Positions 6,164 through 28,690 of a DNA stretch of 64,000 nt are shown in pieces. A model generated the notes under the pieces. It saw only the letters and a list, made by a program, of their open reading frames with translations. It had not been told where the DNA came from and did no database searches. The stretch spans positions 62,001-126,000 of the forward strand of contig NZ_QAOU01000004.1 of NCBI RefSeq assembly GCF_003050965.1, given 5' to 3'. A program made the translations under genes and the position numbers. The first letter of the stretch is position 1. Every line of letters begins with the position of its first letter. Source of the stretch: Nitrosospira sp. Nsp2. Its GTDB lineage: Bacteria > Pseudomonadota > Gammaproteobacteria > Burkholderiales > Nitrosomonadaceae.

Positions 6164-6239
6164 GGTGGCTGTAGCTCAGTGGTAGAGTCCCGGATTGTGA
6201 TTCCGGTTGTCGTGGGTTCGATCCCCATCAGCCACCCCA
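6164..6239 (+). tRNA. tRNA-His (anticodon GTG), integration site of element A
   Basis: The acceptor stem is GTGGCTG/CAGCCAC with a G at position -1 (6164) and discriminator C, both hallmarks of tRNA-His. The anticodon arm ccgga-TTGTGAT-tccgg gives GTG, and CCA is encoded. The 3' part from 6191 to 6239 is repeated exactly at 15901-15949, so integration preserved a complete functional tRNA here. Confidence 0.96.
6191..6239 (+). repeat. Attachment site repeat 1 (attL, tRNA-His 3' end)
   Basis: A 49-bp sequence running from the anticodon stem to the CCA end of tRNA-His, identical to 15901-15949. The base before it differs (c at 6190, g at 15900) and the base after it differs, so the repeat is exactly 49 bp. 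Confidence 0.95.
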
Positions 6240-14322: not shown

Positions 14323-14420
14323 GAAACACCCCTTCAGGTGTCATCCTTCGAATAGGGGCGCCAGACAGGCGGTGAAGGTTTCCGCTTTTCTCCCCGTCGG
14401 GATAGTCTGGAGCTTAATCG

Positions 14421-15749
14421 TCAGGTGTTTTTCACTACCTGTAAATCAGGTTGCACCGGGACAAATTCAATCCCGGCTTGTTCCAATATCCATGCTTCAA
14501 TTTTCACATGCCACTTGCGCAACAGATCAAGCGGCCGCCGGATATAGTGCTGCTCCCGTACCCCTTGTGGCGCATGCCCCTGGATCTGTGCAGCGATCCC
14601 GGCGGGCATCTCTATCCACTCGCACAGACTAGCAAAGCTGCGACGCAGGCCGTGCAGTGTCACTTCCACGCCAGCAACAGCACAGACTCTGTAATTCGCA
14701 TCATGGGGGTCCTGCAAGTGGCCGGAAGCAGCTGTTGGGCTTGAGAATACATACTCATTTCGACGTGGCAATGAGGCCAGCAGATGCGCCAGGTAGGGCG
14801 GCAAGGGAATAACGCGCAATCCTTGCATCTTGTCCTTTATGGTCATGCTGCCCCATTGGAAATCAACATCGTTCCAACGAACAGCGGTCAGCTCATTCGT
14901 GCGTGCACCGGTCAATAGCAGGGCTTGCAGATAGGCCGAAATAACAGGGTTCCCAATTTGTCTTACGGCTTTAAACCATGCCGGCAGTTGCTCGCGTTGC
15001 AGCGCGTCATCTTTCTTCTGCGGTCTGCCTAATATTTCGCGGATGGATTTGTTTCTTGCAGCGTTACCAGTCACCAGCTCCCGATAAGCGGGATACTCTG
15101 CACACCAGGTGAGAAAAACAGACAGCAGGCGGCTGGCAAGGCGGGCTCGACCTGGACGTTGCTTACTTTCCACCTTTGCCCATTCCGTCACCAGGTCAGG
15201 GCTTACGTCGATAAGTCGAACCATGGCCAGTGATGCAAGGGCGCCCGGTTGGGTCAGCTTTTCGCTTCGTTTCCTTGTCTTCCCGCCAGTTTGCATGGCC
15301 TCTATATGGTCGGCATAGTGACGCTCGCCCCAGAACGGCTTGCGGGCTTTCAAATATTCATCCCATGCCATACCAAGCGTTACCGCTTCACGGGCCTCCT
15401 GCATAACCAGGGCGGCAGCTTGAGCCTCTTTAGCCAGCCTTGCTGATACCCTTGCGGCCTCCTCATCAGCTTCCACCTGGCGCGGGTCGTCGCCCTGGTC
15501 TATTGTCACCTGAAGTTTGCGGGCTTCTTTTTGTGCATCAGCAATGCTCCATGCGCTCGCGTCGCCTATAGTGACGCGCATGGACTGCCCCTTAACCTTC
15601 GATTGGAAAATGTACCGCTTTCGATCTGAACCGGCGGTTGCCCGCACTCCCAGGCCGTGTACCTCGTCACACCAAAGAAAGGCTTGCTGCTTGTCCCTAG
15701 GGCATTGGAAGTTTTCAATCCTTCCAGCGGTGAGTTTCACCTTCGCCAT
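14421..15749 (-). CDS. P4-type tyrosine integrase of element A
   Basis: 442 residues. The N-terminal DUF4102 arm-binding domain is recognisable (LWCDEVHGLGVRATAGSDRKRYIFQSKV, then ITIGDASAWSIADAQKEA-type sequence). The catalytic domain has R in LLLTGARTNELTAV, HGLRRSF, GHAPQ and the nucleophile tyrosine in EQHYIRRP. It integrates circular DNA at the tRNA-His 3' end, matching the 49-bp repeats. The ATG at 15749 is immediately followed upstream by the arm-type repeat 15756-15780, so the enzyme may repress its own promoter. It lies at the distal end of element A, about 150 bp from the right attachment site. Confidence 0.95.
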   Translation of the reverse strand: MAKVKLTAGRIENFQCPRDKQQAFLWCDEVHGLGVRATAGSDRKRYIFQSKVKGQSMRVTIGDASAWSIADAQKEARKLQVTIDQGDDPRQVEADEEAARVSARLAKEAQAAALVMQEAREAVTLGMAWDEYLKARKPFWGERHYADHIEAMQTGGKTRKRSEKLTQPGALASLAMVRLIDVSPDLVTEWAKVESKQRPGRARLASRLLSVFLTWCAEYPAYRELVTGNAARNKSIREILGRPQKKDDALQREQLPAWFKAVRQIGNPVISAYLQALLLTGARTNELTAVRWNDVDFQWGSMTIKDKMQGLRVIPLPPYLAHLLASLPRRNEYVFSSPTAASGHLQDPHDANYRVCAVAGVEVTLHGLRRSFASLCEWIEMPAGIAAQIQGHAPQGVREQHYIRRPLDLLRKWHVKIEAWILEQAGIEFVPVQPDLQVVKNT

Positions 15750-15755
15750 GAAATT

Positions 15756-15780
15756 TGTAACCGATTTGTAACCCGATTTT
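15756..15780 (+). repeat. Candidate integrase arm-type site, right copy
   Basis: A 25-bp sequence equal to 6296-6320 except for one base. It lies between the integrase start codon and the right attachment repeat and probably overlaps the integrase promoter. Confidence 0.6.
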
Positions 15781-15900
15781 TAGTATATAGCGGAATATTG
15801 ATCAACACAACGGATGAGCGAAAACGGATCAACTGATTGAAAAACAAGGGAAGAGAGATTTTGCAGAATGGCAATCAACACAGAAAAATACCCTATTACG

Positions 15901-15949
15901 CGGATTGTGATTCCGGTTGTCGTGGGTTCGATCCCCATCAGCCACCCCA
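15901..15949 (+). repeat. Attachment site repeat 2 (junction of elements A and B)
   Basis: A perfect 49-bp copy of the tRNA-His 3' portion. It has no 5' half and so cannot be a functional tRNA. It forms attR of element A and the left end of element B, whose integrase starts 89 bp further on. Confidence 0.95.
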
Positions 15950-16037
15950 AGTACTTCTTTTATCTGCATTATCTCTAGATTTAACGGTTGTGGTAAACTG
16001 ACTGGCCCCTACAGTCTGGCACCTACACATCTCAACC

Positions 16038-17315
16038 GTGGATACAAAATACCTTCAGAAGCGCGGACATCAGTGGTGGGTACGAGTCACTGTGCCACGC
16101 ACTCTCACACACCTCCTAGGAACACACCTAAGAGAGTCCCTTCGTACTTCAGACTTGAAGGTTGCTAATAGCCGGAAGTTCCAAGTGCTTGCAATCCTGA
16201 AGGACCGCATAGCCCAAGCTCGAAAGGATTCACCAAGTACCACTAAAAGCAAAGCGACCATCTTTCGGGAAGCTCTTCGGGAAGCGTACGCGGAAAACGA
16301 TTTGTCCGCTATTGAGGCTCTTCAGTTTCTAGCTGGGGACGAAGCAGAAAGCATAGAGCGTCAGCATGGGCTTAGTGTCGCACAGGCTTTTCACGACGAG
16401 GCAACCTCGGTAGCCCCAACACTAGCCGAAGCAGCAGAGGAGTGGCTTAGCTCTACTGTTACAAAAGAGAGTACGCGACTCAAGCGCCGCAAGGCCTATG
16501 AGGGCCTACGGGAGTTCCTGGGGGGAGATAGCCTTCCTCTAAAGCTAACCGATGTCCAGGCAAGGGATTATGTTGATTCCCTCAAGAAGTCCAAGCTGGC
16601 CCCCAACACCATCCGGGATAAGCTTTCCGCTCTAGGGGGTCTGTGGACATACATGGCTGAGCGTCTGATTGTTCCTAAGGGCACTAATCCGTGGAAAGGT
16701 TTCAACATCCAGGGAGGCTCTACAGAAGCCTGTCGAGCGTTTACCCAAGCCGAGATTCTTATACTGTTGAATGCCACGTATCCACAGCCGTGGCACAAAG
16801 ACGTATTCGTATGTCTACTCCTTACTGGAGCACGACCACAAGAGCTTTGCAGCCTAACTCATGCTGATATTGACCTGGCTGAGAGGCGTATCTCAATCTC
16901 TTCTAGCAAGACCAGGGCGGGAATCAGAAGGCTACCTGTAGAGCACCCTGTTCTCCTCTCCATACTCGGGAAGTACGTTAGGGAGGGGCACAAGGGGTTC
17001 ATCTTCCCGGTGAAGCCTGGGGGTGCCGATAAGTCCCCAGCAGCAAACTATGGGAAGATGTTTGGAAGGATTAAGGCTAGCTTAGGGTTACCGCCAGCAG
17101 CACAGCTCTACAGTGCTCGTAAGTCTTTTATAACGACTGCCCTGGACCTGAATCTTCCCCCCATGGAGATAGAGCGGTATGTAGGGCATGAGGTGGGAAG
17201 ATTGATACTTACTGTCTATAGCCAAGGGAGGGGTGAGAAGGGTCTTAGAGAAGTGGCGATGGGGTTCCGCTACGGTGAAGTCGTAGAGAAAGCCTTAATA
17301 CCTGTGACGTGCTAA
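16038..17315 (+). CDS. Tyrosine integrase of element B
   Basis: 425 residues with GTG start 16038. The N-terminal segment LQKRGHQWWVRVTVPRTL matches the short beta-rich domain (DUF6538-like) of many phage integrases. The core-binding domain follows around 150-240 (TLAEAAEEWLSS..., NTIRDKLSALGGLWTYM). Catalytic residues: R in LLLTGARPQELCSL, R in SARKSF (in place of the usual HxLR), H in GHEVG and Y in LTVYSQG. It reads away from the tRNA repeat at 15901-15949 and is likely to recognise the same tRNA-His end. A truncated, mutated relative lies at 28319-28690. Confidence 0.92.
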   Translation: MDTKYLQKRGHQWWVRVTVPRTLTHLLGTHLRESLRTSDLKVANSRKFQVLAILKDRIAQARKDSPSTTKSKATIFREALREAYAENDLSAIEALQFLAGDEAESIERQHGLSVAQAFHDEATSVAPTLAEAAEEWLSSTVTKESTRLKRRKAYEGLREFLGGDSLPLKLTDVQARDYVDSLKKSKLAPNTIRDKLSALGGLWTYMAERLIVPKGTNPWKGFNIQGGSTEACRAFTQAEILILLNATYPQPWHKDVFVCLLLTGARPQELCSLTHADIDLAERRISISSSKTRAGIRRLPVEHPVLLSILGKYVREGHKGFIFPVKPGGADKSPAANYGKMFGRIKASLGLPPAAQLYSARKSFITTALDLNLPPMEIERYVGHEVGRLILTVYSQGRGEKGLREVAMGFRYGEVVEKALIPVTC

Positions 17316-17504
17316 TGCACGTGAACCTATGCAAGATGCTGTAGGAGGCTGGGGGAGCGTGGATTTGCCCGACACCTACGGCTTGGGTTACGTGCTGGAC
17401 TACATAAAAGTATGGCTTGATAAAGTAGCGCTAGCGGTTATTTGACAGTAGCACTGGCCTGTTGAAATAATATAAGAATCACCCCAAACCGGGATGAATA
17501 CCGA

Positions 17505-18014
17505 ATGGCTGAGCGCACCACGCCGCAAGATAGCGGACATAGTCCGAATCCAGAAACGGTTCTACTTGAGCTTCATCGATTGGTTGCAATATTCCTTTCA
17601 AGTAAAAGCTTTGCTCAACTTCGTACAGGTATTGGCGAGAGTTGGGAACCCATCGAAGCATTACAGGCGTGCGAGGAAGGCGAAATTACACGAATATTGC
17701 TTACTGTAGCCATTACTTTCCGCATAATCGACAACCGCAAAAGGGACCACGTACCACCGAGCCGGTCCTGCGGGACATTATTGAAGAATCTCAAATACCC
17801 TGCCATTAGTACTCCATTAACAGTTAGGGAAGCATGTAACAAAATCCTTCATGCCGATGCAATTCGTGGGGATTTAGATGATACAGCGGACGGGCAGGTT
17901 TACTTGAATCCAGTCATTTACCTCTACGGACCACAGCAACCCGTGCAGTGGAAGGTTACGCTGAACATAATTGATTTTGCGAAGGAGTATGTTTCAATTG
18001 TTTCTTTCCATTAG
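17505..18014 (+). CDS. Hypothetical protein of element B
   Basis: 169 residues, soluble. Polar N-terminus, helical centre (ETVLLELHRLVAIFLSS...) and beta-rich C-terminus (GQVYLNPVIYLYGPQQPVQWKVTLNIIDF). No family is recognised. The central REACNKILHADAI resembles the helix around the active site in some HEPN-like or AbiV-like proteins, but this is weak. It is followed after 18 bp by a membrane-protein gene with which it probably forms a two-gene unit in the cargo position behind the integrase. Confidence 0.55.
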   Translation: MAERTTPQDSGHSPNPETVLLELHRLVAIFLSSKSFAQLRTGIGESWEPIEALQACEEGEITRILLTVAITFRIIDNRKRDHVPPSRSCGTLLKNLKYPAISTPLTVREACNKILHADAIRGDLDDTADGQVYLNPVIYLYGPQQPVQWKVTLNIIDFAKEYVSIVSFH

Positions 18015-18032
18015 TCGCGCCATGAAATCCCA

Positions 18033-18632
18033 TTGAGTGAGAAACCGGCCCTACATTGGCTAAAGCGAGTTGCACGTGCGGTAGCTTGGATAATAGTTGC
18101 TGGCCTTCCAGTAGTTACCGCTATCTTTATCGCCGGTCCTGATGCCATTCGAAATTTTCCGAAAGTTCCGGGCGCTATAAGCGAGACCGTTAAGAGCGTT
18201 CTGTATCAGTCATGGTTGGACAAGCAATTGACAGGAAAATGGAGCGATAATGCTCATGGCAATGCAGGCCCCCCTCCCCCGAACTCACTGACCATAGAGC
18301 TTTGGGTTAACGATGGAACAGTAGATGGACTGATTTCGTCCTCGTACGTAGGAAAGTGGAAACCGAGTGATCTACCCGTGGGAATTCCCGCCTACTACAC
18401 CGCGTTATTGCGTGGAGAAATAGAGGGCAACTCATTAAAAGTGGAGGTTTACGACTTTGTTGACGCCAAAATAGTTAAGTTTGCGGACATAGCGATATGG
18501 TACGGGGAGGAGGATTTAGGGGATTTCGGGGCTTCCACGCCCGACGATAACATACAACAATTACGTGTGGAAACGAAGTGGCAGCTATCTCCGGCGCTTC
18601 CCGAATCCTTAACCCTTACTCGTGCCCATTAG
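18033..18632 (+). CDS. Hypothetical membrane-anchored protein
   Basis: 199 residues beginning at TTG 18033; no better ATG is available. One membrane segment near residues 14-35 (VAWIIVAGLPVVTAIFIAG) is followed by a predicted extracytoplasmic beta-rich domain (LTGKWSDN... SLTIELWVNDGTVDGLISSSYVGKW). The pattern of short strands around LTGKW recalls lipocalin-like or lipid-binding domains, but I cannot assign a family. Cotranscription with the 169-aa gene is likely. Confidence 0.55.
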   Translation: MSEKPALHWLKRVARAVAWIIVAGLPVVTAIFIAGPDAIRNFPKVPGAISETVKSVLYQSWLDKQLTGKWSDNAHGNAGPPPPNSLTIELWVNDGTVDGLISSSYVGKWKPSDLPVGIPAYYTALLRGEIEGNSLKVEVYDFVDAKIVKFADIAIWYGEEDLGDFGASTPDDNIQQLRVETKWQLSPALPESLTLTRAH

Positions 18633-19033
18633 ATATGTGCCGCGCAAAACTTGAGATTAAAGAAGGTTTCCACCGCATCGCGCAAATATTGCCAGAATTC
18701 TAAAAGATTATCAGTTGAGGGTCAGTGCCCACCCTCATTGGTTCCATCGGGTCCCTAAATAGTTTTACCCCAAATTTCCGAGTAGGTACCCAACGTCTCG
18801 GCTCCAAGCGTTTCCCCCCTCCTGGTCCCCTTCTCTTGTCTTTTGATCCAATGACGGTTTAGCAATGACTTTTGTCTTGATCTAGTAGCGCTTCAGTAGC
18901 TTATCGACAATCCTCCGCTGTGTTGTCTACCGTGCGTTACTTTCCTTGTTACTCTGCCTTGTCCCCGTATCGTCTACATTTGCTCTACGTTGCTCTACTT
19001 ATCGTCTTAGTGCTGCTACATGTCTTGTCTACG
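18633..19033. other. Gene-free region with TCTAC repeats
   Basis: No ORF with a credible start is seen. Five copies of TCTAC in a similar pyrimidine-rich context occur at 18926, 18973, 18984, 18994 and 19028, three of them spaced by one helical turn (10-11 bp). They lead directly into the promoter of the HTH gene, as expected for operator arrays or an iteron origin. Confidence 0.5.
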
Positions 19034-19062
19034 TTGACACTCTAGTTTGCTGCACATATAGT
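19034..19062 (+). promoter_or_regulatory. Sigma70 promoter of the HTH regulator
   Basis: Perfect -35 TTGACA at 19034-19039, 17-bp spacer, -10 TATAGT at 19057-19062. It overlaps the last TCTAC repeat (19028-19032). Confidence 0.8.
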
Positions 19063-19132
19063 AAGTATCAATATATTGCGGTAAACACATTGCTTTACAT
19101 TGCAACAATTCATCATTAATTGGACACCCCGT

Positions 19133-19378
19133 ATGGAAATGAGTATGGAAATTGATGATGTGAAACAGCCGACACCCGAGGAGATACGAGCTCTACTTAA
19201 GAAGCACGGCATTAGTAGGGAGAAGGCTGCTTCCCTGGTGCATGCTTCACTTCGTGCTTGGCACAACTGGAGCGCACCCGAGGGAGGAGTAAACCATAGG
19301 GAAATGCCGAAGGCTGCTTGGGAGTTGCTACTAATTAAGTTGGGAGAACATCCAAGCAAGAAACTTGTTGACAAATAG
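19133..19378 (+). CDS. Phage-type HTH transcriptional regulator
   Basis: About 81 residues from ATG 19133; an in-frame TTG lies at 19100. The HTH is TPEEIRALLKKHGISREKAASLVHASLRAWHNWSAPEGG, followed by REMPKAAWELLLIKLGEHP. This arrangement (HTH, Trp pair, then PxAAWELLLIK) is common in small XRE-like regulators of phages and plasmids. It has a consensus promoter and an upstream array of TCTAC repeats, which may be its own operators. A second strong promoter inside its 3' end drives the following 41-aa ORF. Confidence 0.75.
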   Translation: MEMSMEIDDVKQPTPEEIRALLKKHGISREKAASLVHASLRAWHNWSAPEGGVNHREMPKAAWELLLIKLGEHPSKKLVDK

Positions 19379-19396
19379 ATTCATTGAGTCTATATT
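19368..19396 (+). promoter_or_regulatory. Sigma70 promoter of the 41-aa ORF
   Basis: Perfect -35 TTGACA at 19368-19373, 17-bp spacer, -10 TATATT at 19391-19396. It overlaps the stop codon of the HTH gene and lies about 60 bp ahead of a small ORF with a strong Shine-Dalgarno. Confidence 0.8.
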
Positions 19397-19456
19397 CGCT
19401 TCTCACTGAGTGCGGCATTTCGCCAGAGCGCCAGTAACATTAAGGAGAAACACATC

Positions 19457-19582
19457 ATGGCAACATTCACCCTTTCGTTTACCAAGAAGTTCGCCTTAGA
19501 AGTTTCCGGCTTCTCCTCCCTCTATATCCGCTTCGGTAGCTTTGAGCGCTTTTGGAATACTGCTGGTTTCCCCTCACACTAA
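19457..19582 (+). CDS. Candidate 41-aa small protein
   Basis: The ORF runs from ATG 19457 to TAA 19582. AAGGAG at 19442-19447 is 9 bases upstream, and there is a dedicated consensus promoter. The product is aromatic-rich and amphipathic (MATFTLSFTKKFALEVSGFS, then SLYIRFGSFERFWNTAGFPSH). No family is recognised. It could be a small toxin, an anti-repressor or an accessory phage peptide. It is followed by an imperfect hairpin near 19605-19640. Expression signals are better than for most genes in this element, so I think it is real. Confidence 0.6.
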   Translation: MATFTLSFTKKFALEVSGFSSLYIRFGSFERFWNTAGFPSH

Positions 19583-19703
19583 TCACGATATACGGCTATA
19601 CCAGGGGAGCTTAAAAGTCAGCTCTCCCGCTCCCCCTCTAGAAACTGGTAGCACTTTACATGTGCCGACTCACCTCGTATTAAAGCCACTCCTTTCGTTC
19701 TAT

Positions 19704-20474
19704 TTATGACAGGGGCGTTATTAGCCAACCAAGTAGTGGCTTGGCTTGCTCAATTCTGTTCATTAGTGCGATAGCAAACTTGTCAGTTTCGACAAATGCC
19801 TTGGTGCCTTCCCTAAATCGTTGCCAAGCGCGTATAACCTTAGAATATCCCTCCTTATCCTTGGGGTCCTCAAGCGGGTCACTATGAGAACCCATGTCTG
19901 TAAATCCACTACGAAACGCGTTTTTGATTGAGCCAACACCGCTTATTGGGTAGTCGCGAATTCCGGCTTCAATAATACCGAGCTGTCTCATCAGAAAATC
20001 CTTAACTCCAGGAGAATATGACGCAGTTTCAATCTCTGCCCTCAGCTTTAGCAACATATCCAATACATCCTGTAATTCAGCTAAGGAAATCGGAGGTTCT
20101 GGTTTAAGAATTTCCGAACAGTATGCAAGCGCGAGAAGAGTATCTGGTTGAATATTGCCCTTATAATTAGACCAGGGCGCAGATATGTTTGCTACCGTAA
20201 CCACGTTCCTAACCCTATCCAGGTAAGGCATATATAGTTCTGGGGAAAATTGTGTTTCTCCCATTAATGTCCTTGCGCGGTTAATCTCGATACGTACCAG
20301 TCCGAGCTTTTCCAACACATCATGAGGGTCCTCTAACGCCGCCGCAGGGTCAAGCCCAAGAACTTGTGCCCAAACCTGTACTGTAGATATCTGATCAGAT
20401 TTCTCTAAAACCTTTTTCATCAGAATTAAAAGCCTTTTTGCAGAATTGTTCTGTTCGTCTGCTGCTTCATCCAT
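19704..20474 (-). CDS. Hypothetical protein of element B
   Basis: 256 residues, soluble and helical throughout, with repeated Leu-rich amphipathic helices (RLLILMKKVLEKSD, LAELQDVLDMLLKLRAEIE, WQRFREGTKAFVE). No known domain or catalytic motif is seen. It is the only minus-strand gene in the left half of element B and faces away from the serine recombinase, so the 222-bp gap between them can hold two divergent promoters. It may be a cargo or defence-related gene; I cannot say more. Confidence 0.6.
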   Translation of the reverse strand: MDEAADEQNNSAKRLLILMKKVLEKSDQISTVQVWAQVLGLDPAAALEDPHDVLEKLGLVRIEINRARTLMGETQFSPELYMPYLDRVRNVVTVANISAPWSNYKGNIQPDTLLALAYCSEILKPEPPISLAELQDVLDMLLKLRAEIETASYSPGVKDFLMRQLGIIEAGIRDYPISGVGSIKNAFRSGFTDMGSHSDPLEDPKDKEGYSKVIRAWQRFREGTKAFVETDKFAIALMNRIEQAKPLLGWLITPLS

Positions 20475-20591
20475 TTTCTTCTCACCCGCATTGATTAATG
20501 ACAGTAGCCAGCCTACAAGGATACGCTAATCCAGCCCATCCCTTATCACTGAGGTTGGAGGGAATAGTGTCCATCTAGGGTGTACCCATTT

Positions 20592-20677
20592 TGTACAGTC
20601 AGAAAGGTGTACAACCAGGGTATAAATGGGGGTGGTATTGACAGTTGTGTCTTATGGTCTTAAACTCTGACTGTACA
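20592..20677. promoter_or_regulatory. Inverted-repeat site (res/operator) and promoter of the serine recombinase
   Basis: A perfect 12-bp inverted repeat, TGTACAGTCAGA at 20592-20603 and TCTGACTGTACA at 20666-20677, with a further TGTAC at 20608-20612. A promoter lies between the arms: TTGACA at 20638-20643, 17-bp spacer, TAAACT at 20661-20666. This is the layout of a resolvase or invertase crossover/operator site controlling its own gene. Confidence 0.6.
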
Positions 20678-20696
20678 TTAATCACCAGGGGCCACC

Positions 20697-21278
20697 ATGA
20701 AGCACCAAACTGTTGGATACATCCGAGTCAGCTCTGTAGATCAGAACTCCGAAAGGCAACTGGAGGGCATGACGCTCGACAAAGTGTTTACGGATAAGGC
20801 AAGCGGTAAGGATACAAATCGGCCTGAGCTTCAGGCAGCGTTGACCTACCTTCGACAAGGAGACACATTAGTAGTACATAGCCTTGACCGCTTGGCTCGG
20901 AATATCGAGGATATGCTTAGGATTGTGCGAGAGCTGAACGCGAAGGGTGTATCCATCAAGTTCATGAAGGAAAGCCTAGCGTTCGATGCAGCCACCAATG
21001 ACCCTCGCTCGACCTTGATGTTTACCATCCTTACCGCGTTCGCTGAGTTTGAGAGGTCGTTGATCAGGGAGCGCCAGCGTGAGGGGATAGCAATAGCCAA
21101 AGCCAAGGGTGTGTATAAAGGTGGCACCAAGAGCCTCACCTCTCAACAAGTGGAGGACATTAAGCAGCGAGTAGCAGCTGGTGTGCCAAAAGCACGTATT
21201 GCAAAGGACCTCAAGATTAGCCGGCAAACACTATACAACTACCTTGATCCGGTAAGTAAGGTGGCACAGCCAGCGTGA
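20697..21278 (+). CDS. Serine recombinase (resolvase/invertase family)
   Basis: 193 residues, the normal length of small serine recombinases. The catalytic serine is S12 in YIRVSS. The ALTYLRQGDTLVVHSLDRLARN segment and the helix E region FTILTAFAEFERSLIRERQREGIA are intact. The C-terminal HTH is GVPKARIAKDLKISRQTLYNYL. It catalyses resolution or inversion between short sites; an inverted-repeat site overlaps its own promoter. It could resolve element dimers or invert a segment of element B. No transposase is associated. Confidence 0.93.
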   Translation: MKHQTVGYIRVSSVDQNSERQLEGMTLDKVFTDKASGKDTNRPELQAALTYLRQGDTLVVHSLDRLARNIEDMLRIVRELNAKGVSIKFMKESLAFDAATNDPRSTLMFTILTAFAEFERSLIRERQREGIAIAKAKGVYKGGTKSLTSQQVEDIKQRVAAGVPKARIAKDLKISRQTLYNYLDPVSKVAQPA

Positions 21279-21623
21279 GGGGGAAACGCCCGAGGGGAAA
21301 CTAAGCGGGGATGCTAAGGATACAAGGGCAACAGGTCACCTTGGGGCCATAATGCTCAGCATGGGCTTAAGGTTGCCCTACAATCGATTGTCGCCTCAAA
21401 TCAATACCTATCCATGGCTCAGCCCCTTATCGTTCAACCTGAGCCATTGTGGCGTGTTGCTAGGTTGCCTGAGCTACTTGAATTGGAGAGAATCAGGGTC
21501 CGTCACAGAACGCGGCATGGCATGGCTACCCTGTAAGAGGGAGCGTGTTACTGGTCAAAGATTGGAGCATACTGTCGAGCTACGAATCTTCTCCCACAAC
21601 AACAATTATAAGGACTCTGCCAT
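21279..21623. other. Gene-free spacer with a hairpin
   Basis: Holds a 9-bp perfect stem ATGGCTCAG (21414-21422) / CTGAGCCAT (21439-21447) and two GGGGAAAC motifs near 21282-21300. No ORF is convincing. It precedes the secreted 112-aa gene, whose Shine-Dalgarno AAGGA lies at its right end. Confidence 0.4.
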
Positions 21624-21962
21624 ATGAAACCCCACGTAGCTCTCACCCTTCTGTTACTCTCCAGCCCGCTTTCCTACGCAGACTGTATCACCTATCAAGG
21701 TGGCCTCACAGAATGCAGTGGACCGAGGGGTTACCAGTCGTCACAGAGAGAATACCAAGGGGGACTGGCTGAGTCCTATGATAACCGAGGGAACAGAGCC
21801 ACCATCCAGAGGCACACTGGTGGATACACCACAGTGGTAGCCCCTACAGGTATTGCCCCTAGTGTCTCCTCTGCTCCCTCACCAGGATACAGCGGGGGTA
21901 GAGGTGGGGAGATTAACGTGGGGTCCAGGACGAATCCTTATGTGGACCCCTTTGGGAGATAA
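21624..21962 (+). CDS. Secreted protein with TYxGG / GPRGY / YDNRGN motifs, member 1
   Basis: 112 residues with a signal peptide (MKPHVALTLLLLSSPLSYA, cleavage likely before DC). The mature part carries CITYQGGLTECSGPRGY, EYQGGLAESYDNRGN and RHTGGYTTV, and ends in a Gly/Ser/Pro-rich tail GEINVGSRTNPYVDPFGR. The two cysteines may form one disulphide. The same motif series occurs in the N-terminal part of the secreted protein at 27377-28120, so the two are paralogues inside one element. I do not recognise a described family. A periplasmic or surface role is inferred from the signal peptide; nothing tells the function. Confidence 0.7.
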   Translation: MKPHVALTLLLLSSPLSYADCITYQGGLTECSGPRGYQSSQREYQGGLAESYDNRGNRATIQRHTGGYTTVVAPTGIAPSVSSAPSPGYSGGRGGEINVGSRTNPYVDPFGR

Positions 21963-22658
21963 CAACACCTAGCTCCCTCAAGGTCACATCAGGGAGGGCT
22001 AAACTTAAGGCATTACCGACCAATTCTTCCATGTTGGCAGCATAATATAAAATGATGGTTCAAGCGGTGTGATTAGCGGTGGATCATGGGGTTAGAACAA
22101 TAATCAATTCTAAAACCCCACTCTCGCACAAGCCCCACCCCCGGTGAGATATATAGTAAGGTAACCTATTGGTATAACTCTTAGTGTACCTCAGGGTAAC
22201 CAGTAGGGAGACTGTGGGGTGATAGCGAGGTACTAGATACTTACTGCTACCCTAGATACACCAAAGCTAAGTGAACCTAGCAAGGAAACCTCAGGGTAAC
22301 ACCCCATGCTCCCCTACAAGATAGGTGCGGTAAGCGGGGTGGGTAACCTGAGGGGCAACAGTGATTGAAGCTGTAAATGGGGTAAGAGACTCAGTACTTC
22401 TATCCCAGTTATGTGCTCATAATGCCACTCTTACCAGCACCCCTGTTAAACAAGGTATTCTCATTAGCTCACATAGGGTTAGGGCAATAATCAATTCTAT
22501 AACCTCACTCTCGCATAGCAGCCCTACCCCAGGGTCAACTATAGTTATATACCTATAGGGTATCTATTAGTTTACTCACTAGGTACCTATAAGTTACCTA
22601 GTAGGGATGCCAAGGTTTAGTGGTAGGTAAGGTAGTGGGTACTGTCCTCACCGTCTCA

Positions 22659-22723
22659 CCTGTAGAACACCCTCTAGTTAACTCCCCGTCACCTGATAGC
22701 TCTGCCTAGAGGGGGACTACAGG
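22659..22723. ncRNA. Candidate structured RNA hairpin
   Basis: CCTGTAG at 22659-22665 pairs with CTACAGG at 22717-22723, and CCCTCTAG at 22670-22677 pairs with CTAGAGGG at 22706-22713, leaving a small internal loop and a 28-nt apical loop. Fifteen perfect pairs in two helices are unlikely by chance. Strand and function are unknown. Confidence 0.4.
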
Positions 22724-23062
22724 AGGCTGGTAGTGCCCCTAATACCACTCCTTACATAGATACCTTCAATACAGGTGTCTATGGGAGTACCCCTACAGGC
22801 TACCTCTGGTTAATACCTGAGCTAGCGATGCGTACCCAGGTCACCCAGAGGGTACTAAATGTTTCCACAAAGTCCTCCCGCGATGGAGAGGCCGCTAGGC
22901 TCTGAATCAACCTAGTGTGTTATGAGAAGTAGCTATCTGCTCTTGCGAGAGCTAATAGTGGCCCTGAGGGGCAAGCTTGGTTGTTATCCACTCTTTGTAG
23001 GCAATGCAGTCAGCCCCCATTGAGTACAACCAGGAAGTACTGCCCCTCTTGCTGCACAAATT

Positions 23063-23123
23063 AGCCCGGTTTAGAGTGTTAGCTCAGTTGTCTATGAGTC
23101 TATATCTCTATTCCGGGCTTTTT
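23063..23123 (+). terminator. Terminator-like hairpin ending the gene-free region
   Basis: AGCCCGG (23063-23069) pairs with CCGGGCT (23113-23119) and TAGAG (23072-23076) with CTCTA (23106-23110), followed by T4-5. On the plus strand this has the shape of a rho-independent terminator, although no protein-coding gene lies upstream for more than 1 kb. This supports a non-coding transcript. Confidence 0.5.
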
Positions 23124-23332
23124 GGCTGAGAGGGGTAATACGCAACTGCGGCACCTCAGGTTCCCCTAAAGCCACCCTCAGACTCATCAGGTTAACCTAG
23201 GAAGAGCTACAGCCTGAGTTTGATAGACTGGTAGCCAATGCTAACCACGGTACACTACAGGGCCTTGTAGGTGCCCTACTGTCGATTCAGTCTATTCCCT
23301 TCTTTCGGAGACCTCCATAGCAAAGCATCACA

Positions 23333-23581
23333 TCAATGCTCTTTGTCTCTCGGGGGGTTAGGGTCGTTACCTGGGGCAATGGTGTCTTTGCTTCGTATCT
23401 TCCCATCTACACCCTTGGTGATTAGCTCTCCTCCGCCTTGCTTCCCTAGCATTCCCTTTGCTGCTCCGATAGCTTCCTTTTGGGTTGCATGTTTGCTAGA
23501 AGCCCGCTCGGCATCATTACGCTTGTTCTCCCAGGTTCCATCCGGTTGCTGGGATACGGTTCTGTCTCGCCCTTTACTCAT
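23333..23581 (-). CDS. DUF2188 domain protein
   Basis: 82 residues from the ATG at 23581, which has a GAGGGGG Shine-Dalgarno; a longer start at 23605 exists. The sequence W-E-N-K-R-N-D-A-E-R-A-S-S, the ATQKEAIGAAKGML helix and the ELITKGVDGKIRSKDTIAPGNDPNPPRD tail fit DUF2188, a small widespread family of unknown function often found on mobile DNA and near phage or plasmid genes. It is the only minus-strand gene in the right half of element B. Confidence 0.75.
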   Translation of the reverse strand: MSKGRDRTVSQQPDGTWENKRNDAERASSKHATQKEAIGAAKGMLGKQGGGELITKGVDGKIRSKDTIAPGNDPNPPRDKEH

Positions 23582-23893
23582 GTCTTGGCCCCCTCGAATG
23601 TCCAAATAATTATTAACTGCTCATCTGTTACTACGACACTAATAACGATTAGCTAAAGCAATAAATGAAACGGAAGTAGCGTCAACGTTACCCTTTCAAA
23701 AAAGCATACACCCCTTGTTGCACCACAGCAGGTTCCCCCTAAACTTTCCATTCCCCCATATGCGATTCTAATAAAGAATATCACCCCTCCCATACCTTGT
23801 CATTAACCTCATCACACTATTCGGTGAGGCGAAAACACTTCGTTAACAGCAACCTATTCGTTACCTGTCTTGTTCTTTTAAGGACCCCATATT

Positions 23894-24265
23894 ATGCTAG
23901 TAGCTTTAAATACTCTCTCAGCAGCCCTTCACGCATTCAAAGAGTTTACCCAACAACCCGATGTGCAAATACAGACCGTGCAGACCTTCTTAGTCATCGC
24001 CGCCCAGGGAAATCCCGGAGTAGATGAATTAGCACGGCAAATAGGACTCACCCAAGCGGCCGCCAGCAGAAATCTCAAAAAACTGCGAGAAGGTCCGCAT
24101 GGGCAGGAAGGGTACAGTCTTATCACTATGACACTAGACCCCCTTGATAACCGCAGGCGAATAACTAAGCTGACTGCACGAGGGCACGAACTGGTGCGCC
24201 ATCTTGAGGGAGCAATGCTCCCCCCGATCCGCTCCCACGTTATTCGGGAATTGATGAAAGGGTAG
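23894..24265 (+). CDS. MarR-like winged-helix regulator
   Basis: 123 residues. The helix-turn-helix GVDELARQIGLTQAAASRNLKKL is followed by a wing (MTLDPLDNRRRITKLTARGHELVRHLEG), the typical MarR layout, though the dimerisation helices are short. ATG 23894 is preceded by AAGGA. It ends 2 bp before the start of the second tyrosine integrase, so the pair is almost certainly cotranscribed. A regulator immediately upstream of an integrase suggests control of its own integration or excision module. Confidence 0.8.
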   Translation: MLVALNTLSAALHAFKEFTQQPDVQIQTVQTFLVIAAQGNPGVDELARQIGLTQAAASRNLKKLREGPHGQEGYSLITMTLDPLDNRRRITKLTARGHELVRHLEGAMLPPIRSHVIRELMKG

Positions 24266-24267
24266 AC

Positions 24268-25332
24268 ATGATAAAGCCCACGGGGAAGAAGGGAACCTAT
24301 TGGTGTGATTTCCGAACCCCCGATGGGAAGCGTATCAGACAGTCCCTGCATACCGCTGATTGGGCAGAGGCCAAGGCTCTAGAGATAAAGCTGAGATACG
24401 ATGCTAAAGCTACTACCGACCGCATACGCAAAGGAGGAATCACCCTTTCAGAGGCATTTCAACATGCTCTACGGGTAAGGGACTCTTGGAGGTCCGCCAA
24501 AAGCTTAGGCTCTATCGAAGCGATATATAACCAAGTTGTGGCCCACTTCGGAGCCAAGCGCCCCCTCTCGAAGATTACCGACGAACTCCTCCTTCAGTAT
24601 GGGGAGAAACTTAAGCGCCAGCGTAAGACACCCTCCACGATAAACAAGAGGCTATCCCTAGTTTCCGTGCTGTTTGATGAAGCCATTAAATGGAAAAAGT
24701 ACAGTGGGGAAAAACCAAAACTCATCAGATACAGGGTCAAGAATGATAGGAGGAGGTTGATTACTCCCGAAGAGGAAGCTTGGGCTGTCTCCCTGTGTAT
24801 CCAAAGCAGCCCGTACGAGGCGGCAATGGCTGAACTTATCATTGTCTTGGCTGACACTGGCCTGAGACTCTCTGAAGCCCTCAGAATTCTGCCCAGGAAC
24901 TTGGATATACATAACAGGACTGTGCTCGTAATGGACACCAAGTCGGGAGATGACAGAGTTGTACCCCTTACTGGCAGAGCCTTAGCAATCCTCCAGAGGC
25001 GCAATACGACTCCAGTGTTTTGGCCTTTGAATGCTCACGTGGTCTCTCATATCTGGCGAAGGATTCGTAAGAAGATGGGCTTGGAGCATGATAAGGAATT
25101 TGTGTTACATGCCTTCCGTCACACTTATGGTTCCACGCTGGCAAATGCTGGGACCGATTCTTTCCGTTTGCAGAAGGTTATGGGGCACAAAAGTATTCTG
25201 TCTACACAACGATACATTAAGGTCTCAGCCTCAGCCCTCAGTGGCCTCTCCAGCATTATCGAAGCTCGCACTGCCACGTTCAAGCACCACGTTCTCCCCG
25301 AAGACAAGCAGGAAGAAACCCCTAAAGGATAG
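24268..25332 (+). CDS. Second tyrosine integrase/recombinase of element B
   Basis: 354 residues. The N-terminal beta-rich part YWCDFRTPDGKRIRQSLHTADWAEAKALEIKL is typical of phage integrases, and the catalytic residues are complete: R in LADTGLRLSEAL, HAFRHTYGS, GHKSI and Y in STQRYIKV. It is not a close relative of the integrase at 16038, so element B holds two independent integration enzymes. No attachment repeat for this enzyme was found, so it may be a relic of an older phage or act on internal sites. Confidence 0.92.
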   Translation: MIKPTGKKGTYWCDFRTPDGKRIRQSLHTADWAEAKALEIKLRYDAKATTDRIRKGGITLSEAFQHALRVRDSWRSAKSLGSIEAIYNQVVAHFGAKRPLSKITDELLLQYGEKLKRQRKTPSTINKRLSLVSVLFDEAIKWKKYSGEKPKLIRYRVKNDRRRLITPEEEAWAVSLCIQSSPYEAAMAELIIVLADTGLRLSEALRILPRNLDIHNRTVLVMDTKSGDDRVVPLTGRALAILQRRNTTPVFWPLNAHVVSHIWRRIRKKMGLEHDKEFVLHAFRHTYGSTLANAGTDSFRLQKVMGHKSILSTQRYIKVSASALSGLSSIIEARTATFKHHVLPEDKQEETPKG

Positions 25333-25410
25333 CTTTAGAGGGCGCTAGTCAATTCCCCCCGCGTAACACCTAAAGTAGCACTCACCCCCAATATCTGAGG
25401 ATATACCCCA

Positions 25411-27054
25411 ATGCCCCGAGAAGTTAGAACGAGCATAGACACGAGACAAGTCTTAACCCCCATCTCAGCTCCACGAGTTACCCAGGTGGTTGCACAGCCT
25501 ACGAACCAGCTAGTAACCCCCGCCGTAGACCCCGAGCTAAACGGCTTGATACACGGGCTTGCCACCATCAGCCCCTCCCTTCAGCAGTACGCCTACGCTA
25601 CACGCTTCGAACAGGCAAAGGACAACGAAAAGCAGATAGCCGCTGGTGCTGCTGCCAAAGCTCAAGGGAAAGATATACCTCCTGGTTCCCCAGAGTACTT
25701 CAAGCACGGATACATGGTGCAAGCCGGGCAAATAGGTGCTGAACAAGCAGCAAATGAATTCACAAACAGGATACAAACTGAGTTCGATTGGGATACAGGG
25801 GACCTCAATAAGTTTACCAAGGACCACTTTTCCCAAGACACGAAGGGAATAACTGATGAGTCATACCTTGAGGGGTACAACCAGGTAATCCCTAAGCGTA
25901 TAGAAGCTGTCCAGGCTGGTGTCCTCAAGCACCGTAGCGAGGCATTAGTAGCCAAGACTGAAGCTAACGCTATGGTAAAGCTGGACAGGGACATGAGAGC
26001 CTACGTGGAGAACGGCGAAGCTATCCCTGATGTGGTCTTTGATACCCACCGCAAGGACTTGAAGGATGCATTCGGTATCTCAGGTAGCCGGTTTAATGAA
26101 CTTCTCTTTGCCTCCATGAAACGTATTGGGGACGATGGAAACTATGCAATCTATGAAGCATTGAAGAAGCCCAAGCCTGACGGTACCCCAGGTATGTATT
26201 ACATTCCCGCGTGGAAAGAGAAGATAGACCAAGCACAGATTCACTCTCAGAATGTTTATCTCCAGAAGCGTAGCCAAGCAGATGCAAGCCTAAAGAAGGA
26301 GAGAGAGGATAAGCAGGATACAGCCCTCTACGACGTATTCCTCAAGATGGACACCGACCCCGCATCCGCAAGAATGGAGTACTCAAGGCTTCGCAGTGAG
26401 GGGTTATTCAGCCGTGCATCAGACTTGATTAACTGGGACACCAAGATTAACGCCGCATCTAAAAGGGAAGCGTCAGCGGAACAGCAGGACCATGAGGTCA
26501 CACTTCAGCAGGGTATCTATACCGGCAAGGTACGCCCACAGCAGATAGTCCAGGCTGACATTACTCCAGCACAGAAGCGTTCGCTTATGACAGAGTGGCG
26601 GCAAGTGACGAATGATGCACGGCAAGCAGCCGCAGCAGGGCAGACCGCAGCCAACTCCATCTATCGAACTCAGGACTTCCGCTCAGGGGAAACGTACATT
26701 GAAACAGTATTACGCCCCCAAGCTTCCCCACTAGACCCTATGGGTATAGGTACCGAATTTGCACGGCAACAAATGGCTACAGCCCGCAAGGAGTTCACTA
26801 TTCGCGCCCGTGAAATTAAGAAACCACATGAGCTTCAAGAGCTAGCATCGGAGATAGCTACCCGCTTTCTGGATAGGAGGAAGGACCCGAGGGTCAATCA
26901 GGAAGTAGAAATGGCTGGCTCCCTCCGCTACTCCACGCTGGAGGAACTGAAGGCAGCAAGTGACGCGGGACTACTCACTGACCCGGTAGAGTTTGAAAAC
27001 CATCTTCGCTATTTCAGGGCCGCACAGTCGCGGGATTCTAGAAAGGCTCGATAG
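25411..27054 (+). CDS. Phage protein resembling internal virion proteins of T7-like podoviruses
   Basis: 547 residues, soluble, Ala/Gln/Lys/Glu-rich and strongly helical, with no signal peptide. The N-terminal region (disordered PTNQLVTPAVDPELNGL, then LATISPSLQQYA and FEQAKDNEKQIAAGAAAKAQGKDIPPGSPEYFKHGYMVQAGQIGAEQAANEF) matches my recognition of T7-like internal core or ejection proteins, which form the channel or peptidoglycan-crossing tunnel. No other virion gene is nearby. It is followed by a strong terminator at 27089-27130. The assignment comes from sequence style rather than a diagnostic motif, so it is only moderately secure. Confidence 0.55.
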   Translation: MPREVRTSIDTRQVLTPISAPRVTQVVAQPTNQLVTPAVDPELNGLIHGLATISPSLQQYAYATRFEQAKDNEKQIAAGAAAKAQGKDIPPGSPEYFKHGYMVQAGQIGAEQAANEFTNRIQTEFDWDTGDLNKFTKDHFSQDTKGITDESYLEGYNQVIPKRIEAVQAGVLKHRSEALVAKTEANAMVKLDRDMRAYVENGEAIPDVVFDTHRKDLKDAFGISGSRFNELLFASMKRIGDDGNYAIYEALKKPKPDGTPGMYYIPAWKEKIDQAQIHSQNVYLQKRSQADASLKKEREDKQDTALYDVFLKMDTDPASARMEYSRLRSEGLFSRASDLINWDTKINAASKREASAEQQDHEVTLQQGIYTGKVRPQQIVQADITPAQKRSLMTEWRQVTNDARQAAAAGQTAANSIYRTQDFRSGETYIETVLRPQASPLDPMGIGTEFARQQMATARKEFTIRAREIKKPHELQELASEIATRFLDRRKDPRVNQEVEMAGSLRYSTLEELKAASDAGLLTDPVEFENHLRYFRAAQSRDSRKAR

Positions 27055-27376
27055 CTAGCGCGTTTGTTGCATCACACTGATTGAATTTGACCCCCTAGGC
27101 TTTCCTCTATGGAAACTTCGGGGGTCCTTTTGCGGCCAACCCATCCGCAACATTGAAGTGCCTCAGACAGTGACTCATCAGAAACCTCTAGGATGAGCTA
27201 GAGATACGACACTAAGGCAGAGGTGTCAAATTCATCGCTAAATTGATTGTGAGCCGCCAAAACGCTATTACTGACCATTCCCTACAAATCCTCACCCATA
27301 AACTAGCTCATCGTTAACGGTGGGAGTAGTATCTAAGGCTGTAGATGAGACAACAATATAAAAAGGAATAATAAGA
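27055..27376. other. Gene-free spacer with terminator
   Basis: Apart from the terminator at 27089-27130 nothing is recognised. The last 20 bases hold the AAAGGAATAATAAG ribosome-binding region of the next gene. Confidence 0.5.
27089..27130 (+). terminator. Strong rho-independent terminator
   Basis: GACCCCC (27089-27095) pairs with GGGGGTC (27120-27126), with an inner TTCC/GGAA stem, followed by CTTTT. It resembles phage-type terminators and closes the 547-aa gene. Confidence 0.85.
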
Positions 27377-28120
27377 ATGAAAAGCCTATCTCTCTTCCTG
27401 CTCCTCTCTCTTTCATTTCTTCCTTCAGCCCCTCTGTCGGCCCAGGTTAATTGCACTACATACTTCGGTGGGGAAACCTCTTGCAATGGCCCTCGTGGGT
27501 ACCATGCGGAGGGGAGGCAGTACTTCGGAGGTGTAGAAAGCTGGTATGACAATAGGGGGAACACCTCTACTGTTCGGCATCACGCCTTCGGTGTAACCAC
27601 GATAGATGCAGAGCCGCGTTACACCTTTCCACATGGGGCAGGAAGATTATTCAACCCATCAGTGGACACAGGGAAAGGGCGTCTAGATATCCCCCTAATT
27701 GGGGAAAAGCGCCCACATCATCGTGATAGAGGAGGCGACACCTACCAACAGATGTACGGCACACCCCAGCCCACAGCTTATAGCGCTAAAGAGATGGAGC
27801 AGTTTGAAACCGCCCATCGCGCTCGAATGGCAGAGCACGCTGCTTGGCAGAAAAACTATGAAGAGGTGATAGTTCCTATCATCTTACGTTCGCGGGCTGA
27901 GAACGCAGATGAGCAAGCCCGGCAGGTAGCGGGTAAGGCCCTAAAGGACAAAATTCTTGGCAGAAAACAAGCAGAAGCTAGGGTAGGTAATTTAAAGCAG
28001 GTGGCGAAGAATGACACAGACCTGAAGCAGCAGAAAGCACGAGCTTCAGCAGAAATGGCCCTCCTAGATGCAGAGCTAGACCATATGATAGCTAGGCAGG
28101 CTCAAGCTAAGGGGAATTGA
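27377..28120 (+). CDS. Secreted protein with TYxGG / GPRGY / YDNRGN motifs, member 2
   Basis: 247 residues with a clear signal peptide (MKSLSLFLLLSLSFLPSAPLSAQ). Residues 25-75 repeat the motif series of the 112-aa protein: CTTYFGGETSCNGPRGYH, QYFGGVESWYDNRGN and HHAFGVTTI. Then come a variable linker, KEMEQFETAHRARMAEHAAWQKNYEE, and a long charged C-terminal helix with coiled-coil character (DLKQQKARASAEMALLDAEL). The shared N-terminal module with different C-termini suggests a common binding or surface module. The Shine-Dalgarno AAAGGA is good. The function is unknown. Confidence 0.7.
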   Translation: MKSLSLFLLLSLSFLPSAPLSAQVNCTTYFGGETSCNGPRGYHAEGRQYFGGVESWYDNRGNTSTVRHHAFGVTTIDAEPRYTFPHGAGRLFNPSVDTGKGRLDIPLIGEKRPHHRDRGGDTYQQMYGTPQPTAYSAKEMEQFETAHRARMAEHAAWQKNYEEVIVPIILRSRAENADEQARQVAGKALKDKILGRKQAEARVGNLKQVAKNDTDLKQQKARASAEMALLDAELDHMIARQAQAKGN

Positions 28121-28205
28121 TGAAGTAGAATTGGCCCCTACAGGTGGCACCTACACCCATCGTGTAACCCTCATGGATACTAGGTAACAGTATATAGGTG
28201 TTGCC

Positions 28206-28222
28206 CCCCATCAGCCACCCCA
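28206..28222 (+). repeat. Third tRNA-His 3'-end fragment (right end of element B)
   Basis: 17 bp identical to 6223-6239 and 15933-15949 (CCCCATCAGCCACCCCA). Similarity to the sequence after 15949 continues to the right with many substitutions, into a decayed integrase gene. Confidence 0.75.
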
Positions 28223-28318
28223 ATTACTTCTTTCCTCTGCATTATCCTTAGCTTTAAGAATTGTGGCACACTTACTGGCCACTGCAACCTGGCGCCTATG
28301 GCCCTTCGTATGGGTGCT

Positions 28319-28690
28319 AAATACCTTCGGCGACGCGGGCCACTATCGGGTGGGTAAGCCACTGTATCGCGTCGCTCATACATCCCCTAGGAACATATTT
28401 AACAGGGTCCTCTCGTACTTCAGACTTGAAGGTTGGCAATAGTCGGAAGTTCCAGGTGTTAGCAATCATCAAGGACCGCATAGCTCAAGCTAAGAAGGAG
28501 TCACCAAGTACGACCAAGAGCACAGCCGCGCCCTTTAGAGAAGTCCTTCGTCAAGACTATGTAGAAGACAGGCACGGCACAGTGGAGCTGTTGAAGCTTG
28601 GTTTTAGACGAAGCAGAGCGTATAGCTCAGGTACATCGTGATAGTGATGCACAGGCAGTTTATGCAGAAGCCGACCGCCCCATAACAAGA
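28319..28690 (+). pseudogene. Decayed tyrosine integrase N-terminal fragment
   Basis: The DNA is clearly homologous to the start of the integrase at 16038 (for example the shared stretch CCGGAAGTTCCA versus GTCGGAAGTTCCA, and the repeated frame NSRKFQVLAI-x-KDRIAQA). The frame is broken several times, the normal start is lost, and the catalytic domain is absent; recognisable similarity fades near 28690. With the tRNA fragment just upstream it marks the left end of a third, mostly deleted element related to B. Confidence 0.8.

What the first reader, a model, noticed from the sequence alone, without database searches (positions are those of the whole stretch)
21624..28120. Pair of secreted paralogues with a shared Cys/Gly/Tyr module and different C-termini
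Two genes in element B encode signal-peptide proteins sharing C-x-TY-x-GG, C-x-GPRGY, a Y-x-GG step, YDNRGN and H-x-x-G-x-TT in the same order. One is just the module plus a Gly-rich tail (112 aa); the other continues into a 150-residue charged helical region (247 aa). I know no family with this signature. Such modular secreted cargo on a phage-like element could be a surface-modifying, superinfection-exclusion or contact-dependent system.
Basis: partly seen in the sequence, partly recalled or inferred. Interest (0 to 1): 0.7.

Follow-up and report, generated by a model that had tools for sequence, protein, structure and literature searches.

The report
Paired exported proteins on phage-derived island
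Two related small proteins that a soil ammonia-oxidising bacterium appears to export are cargo of a mobile DNA element built around parts of a T7-like virus, and they may protect the cell against related viruses, though that is untested.

Summary
Window 21624-21962 (112 aa) and 27377-28120 (247 aa) encode signal-peptide proteins sharing a 62-residue module (52% identity, E 1e-18) with all five motifs in order. The module matches no curated family above cut-off and no solved fold. AlphaFold gives a six-strand beta-meander; the long form adds a disordered linker and one 110-residue helix. Eight copies occur in 5 of 23 genomes of the genus (Nitrosospira), all in the same kind of integrative element. 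Pairs that could be tested show purifying selection. Here the element is 12.3 kb, at tRNA-His; a same-species genome has the empty site. Its core is the MarR-regulator/integrase cassette of temperate T7-like phages (LUZ100 type), followed by one virion gene, the gp15-type protein that in T7 forms the periplasmic DNA tunnel. Two related elements carry gp14 there. No capsid, portal or terminase was found among 12 ORFs scanned. Best reading: periplasmic cargo of a satellite-like or remnant element, probably superinfection exclusion; function not shown. Bolder, untested: exported proteins and lone ejection protein together block the periplasmic DNA conduit of T7-like phages.

The parts
21624..21962 (+). 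short secreted protein, 112 aa: signal peptide, beta-meander module, Gly/Pro-rich tail
27377..28120 (+). long secreted protein, 247 aa: same module, disordered linker, 110-residue helix
25411..27054 (+). gp15-type internal virion (ejection) protein, 547 aa, full length
   Evidence: 33% identity over residues 1-536 to a gene in the late region of a T7-like viral contig; 65% to G003
24268..25332 (+). tyrosine integrase of temperate T7-like phage type
   Evidence: Pfam PF00589 and phrog_1; 33% to LUZ100 integrase
23894..24265 (+). MarR-like lysogeny regulator (phrog_9665)
   Evidence: 35% to the LUZ100 regulator
27089..27131 (+). predicted intrinsic terminator directly after gp15, also present in L012
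   Evidence: z -3.2 in both
20697..21278 (+). serine recombinase (resolvase/invertase type)
23333..23605 (-). DUF2188 protein, matches PADLOC candidate defence model PDC-S16
19133..19378 (+). small repressor-like protein shared by sister elements
   Evidence: weak phrog_7950 match, E 5e-4; shared
19704..20474 (-). 256-aa protein of unknown function shared with the G003 element
16038..17315 (+). integrase at the left end of element B
15933..15949 (+). 17-bp attachment repeat, left end of element B
28206..28222 (+). 17-bp attachment repeat, right end of element B; chromosome resumes here
6165..6239 (+). tRNA-His, integration target of the tandem elements

Best explanation
The two proteins are cargo of a 12.3-kb integrative element at tRNA-His in a Nitrosospira. 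The core of the element is the lysogeny cassette of a temperate T7-like phage, with one ejection-protein gene (gp15 type) where LUZ100 has its RNA polymerase. Shown: the genes, the paralogy, purifying selection on the testable pairs, the ends of the element, the phage ancestry of its core, and that the eight close copies found in this genus all lie in such elements. Inferred: both proteins are exported by Sec and cleaved by signal peptidase I, giving soluble periplasmic proteins that start 1-4 residues before a cysteine; they fold as a beta-meander with one disulphide, alone (short) or carrying a long helix (long); they are made while the element is integrated and protect the cell, and so the element, by hindering entry of related podoviruses in the periplasm, as prophage exclusion proteins such as the periplasmic Glo protein of phage K139 are described to do. 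The confidence below is for this functional reading; for the anatomy it is about 0.9.
For: Export signal with an early cysteine pair in all complete copies (by eye). All eight close copies lie in integrative elements, three of them with direct repeats at a tRNA. Purifying selection. Regulator and integrase related to LUZ100's adjacent pair, which is cotranscribed there (PMC10134795, passages). Terminator after gp15 separates the long gene from that unit. In G003 the long and short genes overlap by 4 bases, so they are probably translated together. A distant relative lies in a prophage-like region near a repressor-like gene (by eye). The element carries a PDC-S16 candidate defence protein. Precedent: Glo described as soluble periplasmic exclusion protein (PMC3952083, passages).
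Against: No phage phenotype, expression or localisation is known. No shared promoter motif was found upstream of the secreted genes, and the promoter scan was not above its shuffles by much (11 found, mean 7.1, sd 2.7). No known exclusion protein was recognised by sequence or fold. One element with ejection genes (L075) lacks the module and one element with the module (L015) lacks ejection genes. The direct relatives outside the genus, G219 and G036, are not visibly on phage elements (by eye).
Confidence: 0.35

Rival explanations
1. Decaying prophage with host-adaptive cargo: the element is the remnant of a temperate T7-like prophage, and the secreted genes are morons serving envelope, adhesion or stress functions unrelated to phages.
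For: Ejection genes are fragments in G013 and G006; most phage genes are missing; looser relatives exist outside visible phage elements.
Against: The order regulator-integrase-gp15-terminator is kept intact in two elements whose gp15 is 65% identical, with gp15 dN/dS 0.09 (dS 3.0, near saturation).
Confidence: 0.3
2. Phage satellite whose secreted proteins act on the helper's exit or entry: the element excises, is packaged by a T7-like helper, and brings its own ejection protein into helper particles; the secreted proteins tune the envelope for transfer.
For: Size 7-12 kb, integrase and tRNA att sites, no capsid, portal or terminase among 12 ORFs scanned in element B, one conserved virion gene.
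Against: No helper was found: the RNA-polymerase search was empty in 23 genomes, but its control was empty too, so this is inconclusive. No packaging site or excision was tested.
Confidence: 0.2
3. Secreted toxin or contact-dependent pair: the variable C-termini are effectors delivered by a common exported head.
For: Shared head with different C-termini; the C-terminal part of the long pair diverges more than its module (pN 0.44 against 0.23).
Against: No toxin-domain match above cut-off, no exporter or immunity gene recognised in the ORFs scanned, and four of the eight copies are short forms whose tails are alike rather than diverse (NPY..R-like ends, by eye).
Confidence: 0.06

Closest known systems
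Lysogeny cassette of Pseudomonas phage LUZ100 (OP329100), a T7-like phage with temperate features
   Same: MarR-like regulator directly followed by tyrosine integrase; 35% and 33% identity to the element's proteins; gp14 of the L075 element has LUZ100 as its best phage.
   Different: In LUZ100 an RNA polymerase and the full late region follow; in the element a lone gp15-type gene follows. LUZ100's own gp15-type protein shows no convincing similarity to P0003 (hhalign probability 2.6), and no exported module protein was found in the phage collection.
Periplasmic exclusion protein Glo of Vibrio phage K139
   Same: Small phage-encoded protein described as soluble and periplasmic, in superinfection exclusion (PMC3952083, passages).
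   Different: No sequence comparison was made; the function is shown there and only inferred here.
SieA of phage P22
   Same: Prophage-encoded block of DNA entry aimed at ejection proteins that form the periplasmic conduit (PMC10883804, passages).
   Different: [quoted passage not shown] the proteins here look soluble.
Exported GN-repeat proteins in other Proteobacteria (G1169, G219, G036)
   Same: Signal peptide, early cysteines and repeated GN..DN.GN units; module profile E 9.5e-8, 1.3e-6, 1.4e-3.
   Different: Longer runs of more regular units; no element of this kind seen around them; no named family above cut-off.
DUF4236 proteins of phages
   Same: Best Foldseek rows of the module in BFVD (E 4e-3) and weak Pfam row (E 0.19).
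   Different: 12.7 bits against a cut-off of 27; rmsd of the top rows is 13-15 A.

Membership tests
Any curated protein family (Pfam, NCBIfam, PHROGs, PADLOC) | profile match above the curated cut-off | tested here: not met
   Seven complete copies in Pfam, NCBIfam and PHROGs; only the two window proteins in PADLOC. Weak rows below cut-off include DUF4236 (E 0.19), DUF3182 (E 0.025) and phrog_28091 (E 0.021).
RHS/YD or MORN beta-hairpin repeats | Pfam repeat match | tested here: inconclusive
   No such row up to E 1 for seven copies; HMMER filters drop weak matches; the resemblance of YDNRGN to a YD repeat is recalled, not tested further.
Integrative element | integrase and attachment repeats at a defined target, with an empty site in a relative | tested here: met
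   17-bp repeats at 6223, 15933 and 28206; empty tRNA-His site in G012; integrase at 16038-17315.
Phage satellite | lacks a full set of virion genes | tested here: met
   Of 12 ORFs of element B scanned, only gp15 type is a virion gene, and that by synteny.
Phage satellite | excised, replicated and packaged by a helper phage | not testable with these tools
   needs induction or infection; the helper search was inconclusive.
Temperate T7-like lysogeny cassette | MarR-like regulator next to tyrosine integrase of this type | tested here: met
   order kept in L012.
gp15-type ejection protein | homologue of a gene lying between gp14 type and gp16 type in T7-like phages | tested here: met
   L032, L033 and L034: gp14 type before it in L033 and L034, gp16 type after it in L032 and L033; no match to solved gp15 chains.
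Superinfection-exclusion protein | exported or membrane-bound, phage- or prophage-encoded | tested here: inconclusive
   signal peptide by eye only; carried by a phage-derived element.
Superinfection-exclusion protein | made in the lysogen and blocks related phages | not testable with these tools
   sequence data only

The most novel reading that the evidence does not exclude
A family of satellite-like elements of temperate T7-like phages in Nitrosospira has kept, out of the whole virion, only an ejection-protein gene (gp15 or gp14). It sits in the lysogeny operon, where the phage has its RNA polymerase, and the element adds exported beta-meander proteins. Together they would sabotage or commandeer the periplasmic DNA conduit of incoming T7-like phages: an exclusion system built from the invader's own ejection machinery.
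Probability: 0.15. Interest if true: 0.8.

Novelty: new variant of a known kind. Interest (0 to 1): 0.5.

Why it matters
If the exclusion reading holds, it adds an exported, disulphide-bearing beta-meander to the few known periplasmic exclusion proteins, in an ecologically important soil ammonia oxidiser. It would also show ejection proteins being kept outside virions as lysogeny genes. The arrangement regulator-integrase-ejection gene-terminator, kept in two elements whose gp15 is 65% identical, makes a concrete question testable with laboratory T7-like phages: can a lone ejection protein, with or without an exported partner, stop DNA entry?

Tried and rejected
Searches with nothing convincing for the module: phages and plasmids by tblastn (the Acidovorax, Rhizobium, Sinorhizobium and Vibrio rows lie at E 0.4-5 and were taken as chance; the Acidovorax region was looked at); viral contigs. 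In 399 genomes of the order own, G014 and G219 matched; in 369 of the class only the own genome; in 398 of the phylum own, G1169 and four rows at E 1e-3 to 7e-3 that I did not follow. The genome-contig scan returned one locus.

Rows dropped as chance after reading them: L022 of G010; L100, L102 and L104, which lie antisense to a conserved repeat protein, and L101 and L105. L003 (E 0.05, four stops inside) was dropped without reading.

Rejected: spurious ORFs; a shared promoter motif upstream of the secreted genes; amphipathic periodicity in the long helix (771 and 655 of 1000 shuffles reached the observed value for the two long proteins); direct similarity of P0003 to LUZ100's gp15-type protein or to solved gp15. 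An internal duplication of the module (YQGGL..E....RG) is significant in P0001 (0 of 2000 shuffles) and P0002 (17 of 2000) but not in the other five copies tested, so I do not claim it for the family. The search with PF00940 for a phage RNA polymerase was silent in its controls too and shows nothing either way. Integrase P0004 has phages other than LUZ100 as its best rows (Desulfovibrio ProddE, Rhizobium phages).

Not completed: the ends of the G003 element (L012), where no tRNA or convincing direct repeat was found; the third fold-search job; a fold of the long helix alone.
Full report
OBSERVATION. The two ORFs are as described: 21624-21962 (112 aa) and 27377-28120 (247 aa), both + strand. 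Each starts with a signal peptide (by eye; no signal-peptide predictor was run). No lipobox was seen. A site that looks like a signal-peptidase-I site (SYA, LSA, TFA and the like) stands 1-4 residues before the first cysteine in the 7 complete copies (read).

HOMOLOGUES. Of 23 genomes of the genus, 5 have the module, 8 copies in all: two each in the window's genome, G003 and G013, one each in G014 and G022. The genome-contig scan gave one match, a Nitrosospira MAG contig of 5708 bases, the same length as G014's contig, so the genus is Nitrosospira. A same-species genome, G012, has none. A profile search of 125 family genomes listed 11 at E <= 0.01: the five, and six weak ones, of which only G036 is an exported repeat protein. 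The order (399 genomes) gave own, G014 and G219; G219's row (E 1.3e-6) is a 178-aa exported repeat protein beside a gene that reads like htpG (by eye). The class (369) gave only the own genome. The phylum (398) gave own, G1169 (E 9.5e-8) and four unfollowed weak rows; G1169's is a 136-aa exported GN-repeat protein in a prophage-like region near a repressor-like gene (by eye). These group searches except genus and family drew samples. So the strict module was seen only in this genus, with looser relatives scattered in Proteobacteria.

SELECTION. Pairwise Nei-Gojobori estimates: short gene against the G014 copy 0.14 (dS 1.1); G013's two short copies 0.22 (dS 0.62); long pair 0.19 (dS 2.8) and gp15-type gene 0.09 (dS 3.0), both near saturation; serine recombinase against G014 0.09 (dS 1.8). 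The five other pairs were saturated and give no ratio. The module of the long pair is more conserved than its C-terminal part (pN 0.23 against 0.44). The G014 copy carries a stop in the stretch that should be its signal peptide, on a contig labelled coverage 3.8; a real break and an assembly error cannot be told apart.

STRUCTURE. AlphaFold2 with 8 rows predicts six strands over residues 20-72 of the short protein (block pLDDT 74-81) and a disordered tail; mean pLDDT is only 58.7, pTM 0.42. With 7 rows the long protein shows six strands (25-78), a disordered stretch 80-131 and one helix 137-246 at block pLDDT 89-95 over most of its length; pTM 0.31. Foldseek found nothing at E <= 0.001 in BFVD or PDB for the short model. 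The best viral rows are DUF4236 proteins (E 4e-3) and, at rank 4, a 132-aa protein labelled YfaZ of a podovirus assembly (27% identity, E 0.05). The VIA re-alignment peaks at Z 5.6, in the range the tool calls uninformative. A disulphide C21-C31 is inferred from conservation of both cysteines in all 8 rows.

THE ELEMENT. The window matches G012 up to 6239, the end of tRNA-His, and again from 28206, with a 17-bp overlap; the same 17 bases occur at 6223, 15933 and 28206. Two elements therefore sit in tandem, A (6223-15949) and B (15933-28222), and both secreted genes are in B (12.3 kb). B has an integrase at its left end (16038-17315). G013's two copies lie in two different elements with clear ends, one at tRNA-Leu (20-bp repeat, 246 and 9325 in L016, 9.1 kb) and one at tRNA-Met (48-bp repeat, 3924 and 10791 in L015, 6.9 kb). 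The ends in G003 were not found.

CORE OF THE ELEMENT. The regulator (23894-24265) and integrase (24268-25332) match the regulator and integrase of LUZ100 (35% over 104 and 33% over 214 residues), which are neighbours there too and are reported to be cotranscribed (PMC10134795, passages). In LUZ100 the next large gene is the RNA polymerase. Here it is P0003, which matches a gene in three viral contigs, best 33% over residues 1-536, E 9e-88. The contigs place that gene among internal virion genes: phrog_805 (gp14 type) before it in L033 and L034, phrog_6651 or phrog_342 (gp16 type) after it in L032 and L033; L034's homologue itself scores as an internal virion protein, phrog_23202. The phage collection had no match to P0003, and no direct similarity to LUZ100's gp15-type protein or to solved gp15 was found. 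In L014 and L075 the gene after the regulator is gp14 type (phrog_805, E 3e-21 and 2e-21). A strong terminator follows gp15 in both the window and L012 (z -3.2 each; 0 of 200 shuffles fold as well), and the gap between integrase and gp15 has no such fold (z +1.0). The generic terminator scan, limited to short loops, did not list it. The ejection gene thus appears to belong to the lysogeny operon. It is full length in the window and G003 and a fragment in G013 and G006; 4 of 23 genomes have any of it. In 399 genomes of the order only the own genome matched the gp15 profile.

ASSOCIATION. A phmmer scan of 26 loci shows at least one marker (serine recombinase, P0004-type integrase, regulator, small repressor) at each of the six loci that hold the eight close copies. 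Of these six, four also have an ejection gene or fragment (window, L012, L014, L016); L015 has none; L013 is a short contig. Of five loci with an ejection gene or fragment, four have the module and L075 does not. The recombinase is wider: at E <= 1e-40 it has 24 places in 12 of 23 genomes, of which 5 have the module nearby; the other 19 were fetched and the module profile found nothing in them.

MECHANISM. Shown: a phage-derived integrative element, related and selected secreted genes, a lone ejection gene in a lysogeny-type gene order. Inferred: periplasmic location, expression in the lysogen, exclusion. Exclusion proteins acting outside the cytoplasm are established: Glo is described as soluble and periplasmic (PMC3952083, passages; PMC4870250 also calls it a periplasmic protein and an immunity gene, passages), and SieA is reported to interfere with the P22 ejection conduit (PMC10883804, passages). 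T7 gp15 is described as the periplasmic tunnel and gp14 as the outer-membrane pore (PMC8954989, passages). An element that combines exported proteins with gp15 or gp14 invites the idea that the conduit is the target, but nothing here proves it. The DUF2188 protein of B matches PADLOC's candidate defence model PDC-S16 (E 2.5e-19), a further hint of anti-phage cargo.

IN PRINT. In the held open-access library, 'phage satellite' with 'internal virion protein' and 'phage satellites' with 'Nitrosospira' returned no paper. 'Phage satellites' with 'integrase' and 'ejection protein' returned one, seen as a listing, on Staphylococcus. 'Nitrosospira' with 'prophage' returned 38, of which I saw 15 listings, none titled on Nitrosospira prophages. 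Listings only were seen, apart from the papers named above. Subscription journals and preprint servers are not covered.

VERDICT. The reduced design of the element is the more striking part. The function remains open.

Noticed in passing
window 6223-15949: Element A, a second integrated element in tandem at the same tRNA-His: integrase (14421-15749, -), primase/helicase-like protein (10440-11834, -) and a phage head-maturation-protease-like protein (8244-9230, -).
   Followed up: partly
window 28206-28569 and 15933-16298: The chromosome right of element B repeats, at 77-82% identity, the start of B's left end including the beginning of its integrase; it looks like the relic of an older element at the same site, also present in G012.
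   Followed up: partly
window 22085-22128 and 22472-22515: Two 44-nt direct repeats (89%) with a palindromic look, in a stretch of about 1.3 kb (22000-23300) without a convincing gene.
   Followed up: no
window 23333-23605 (-): DUF2188 protein matching candidate defence model PDC-S16; relatives in the G013 (L016) and G022 (L014) elements.
   Followed up: partly
L012 2189-3154 (-) and 10570-11496 (+): Flanking genes of the G003 element: the first has a weak TIR-effector row in PADLOC (E 2e-4); the second reads like a restriction endonuclease by eye.
   Followed up: no
L075 10683-11276 (+): Phage anti-repressor (Ant type, phrog_63, E 5e-47) in the G006 element that carries gp14 and a gp15 fragment but no secreted module.
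   Followed up: partly
L113 7855-8265 (-): A 136-aa exported protein made of GN-repeats (TDSFGNTTCY type) in a prophage-like region of another proteobacterium; no family above cut-off.
   Followed up: partly
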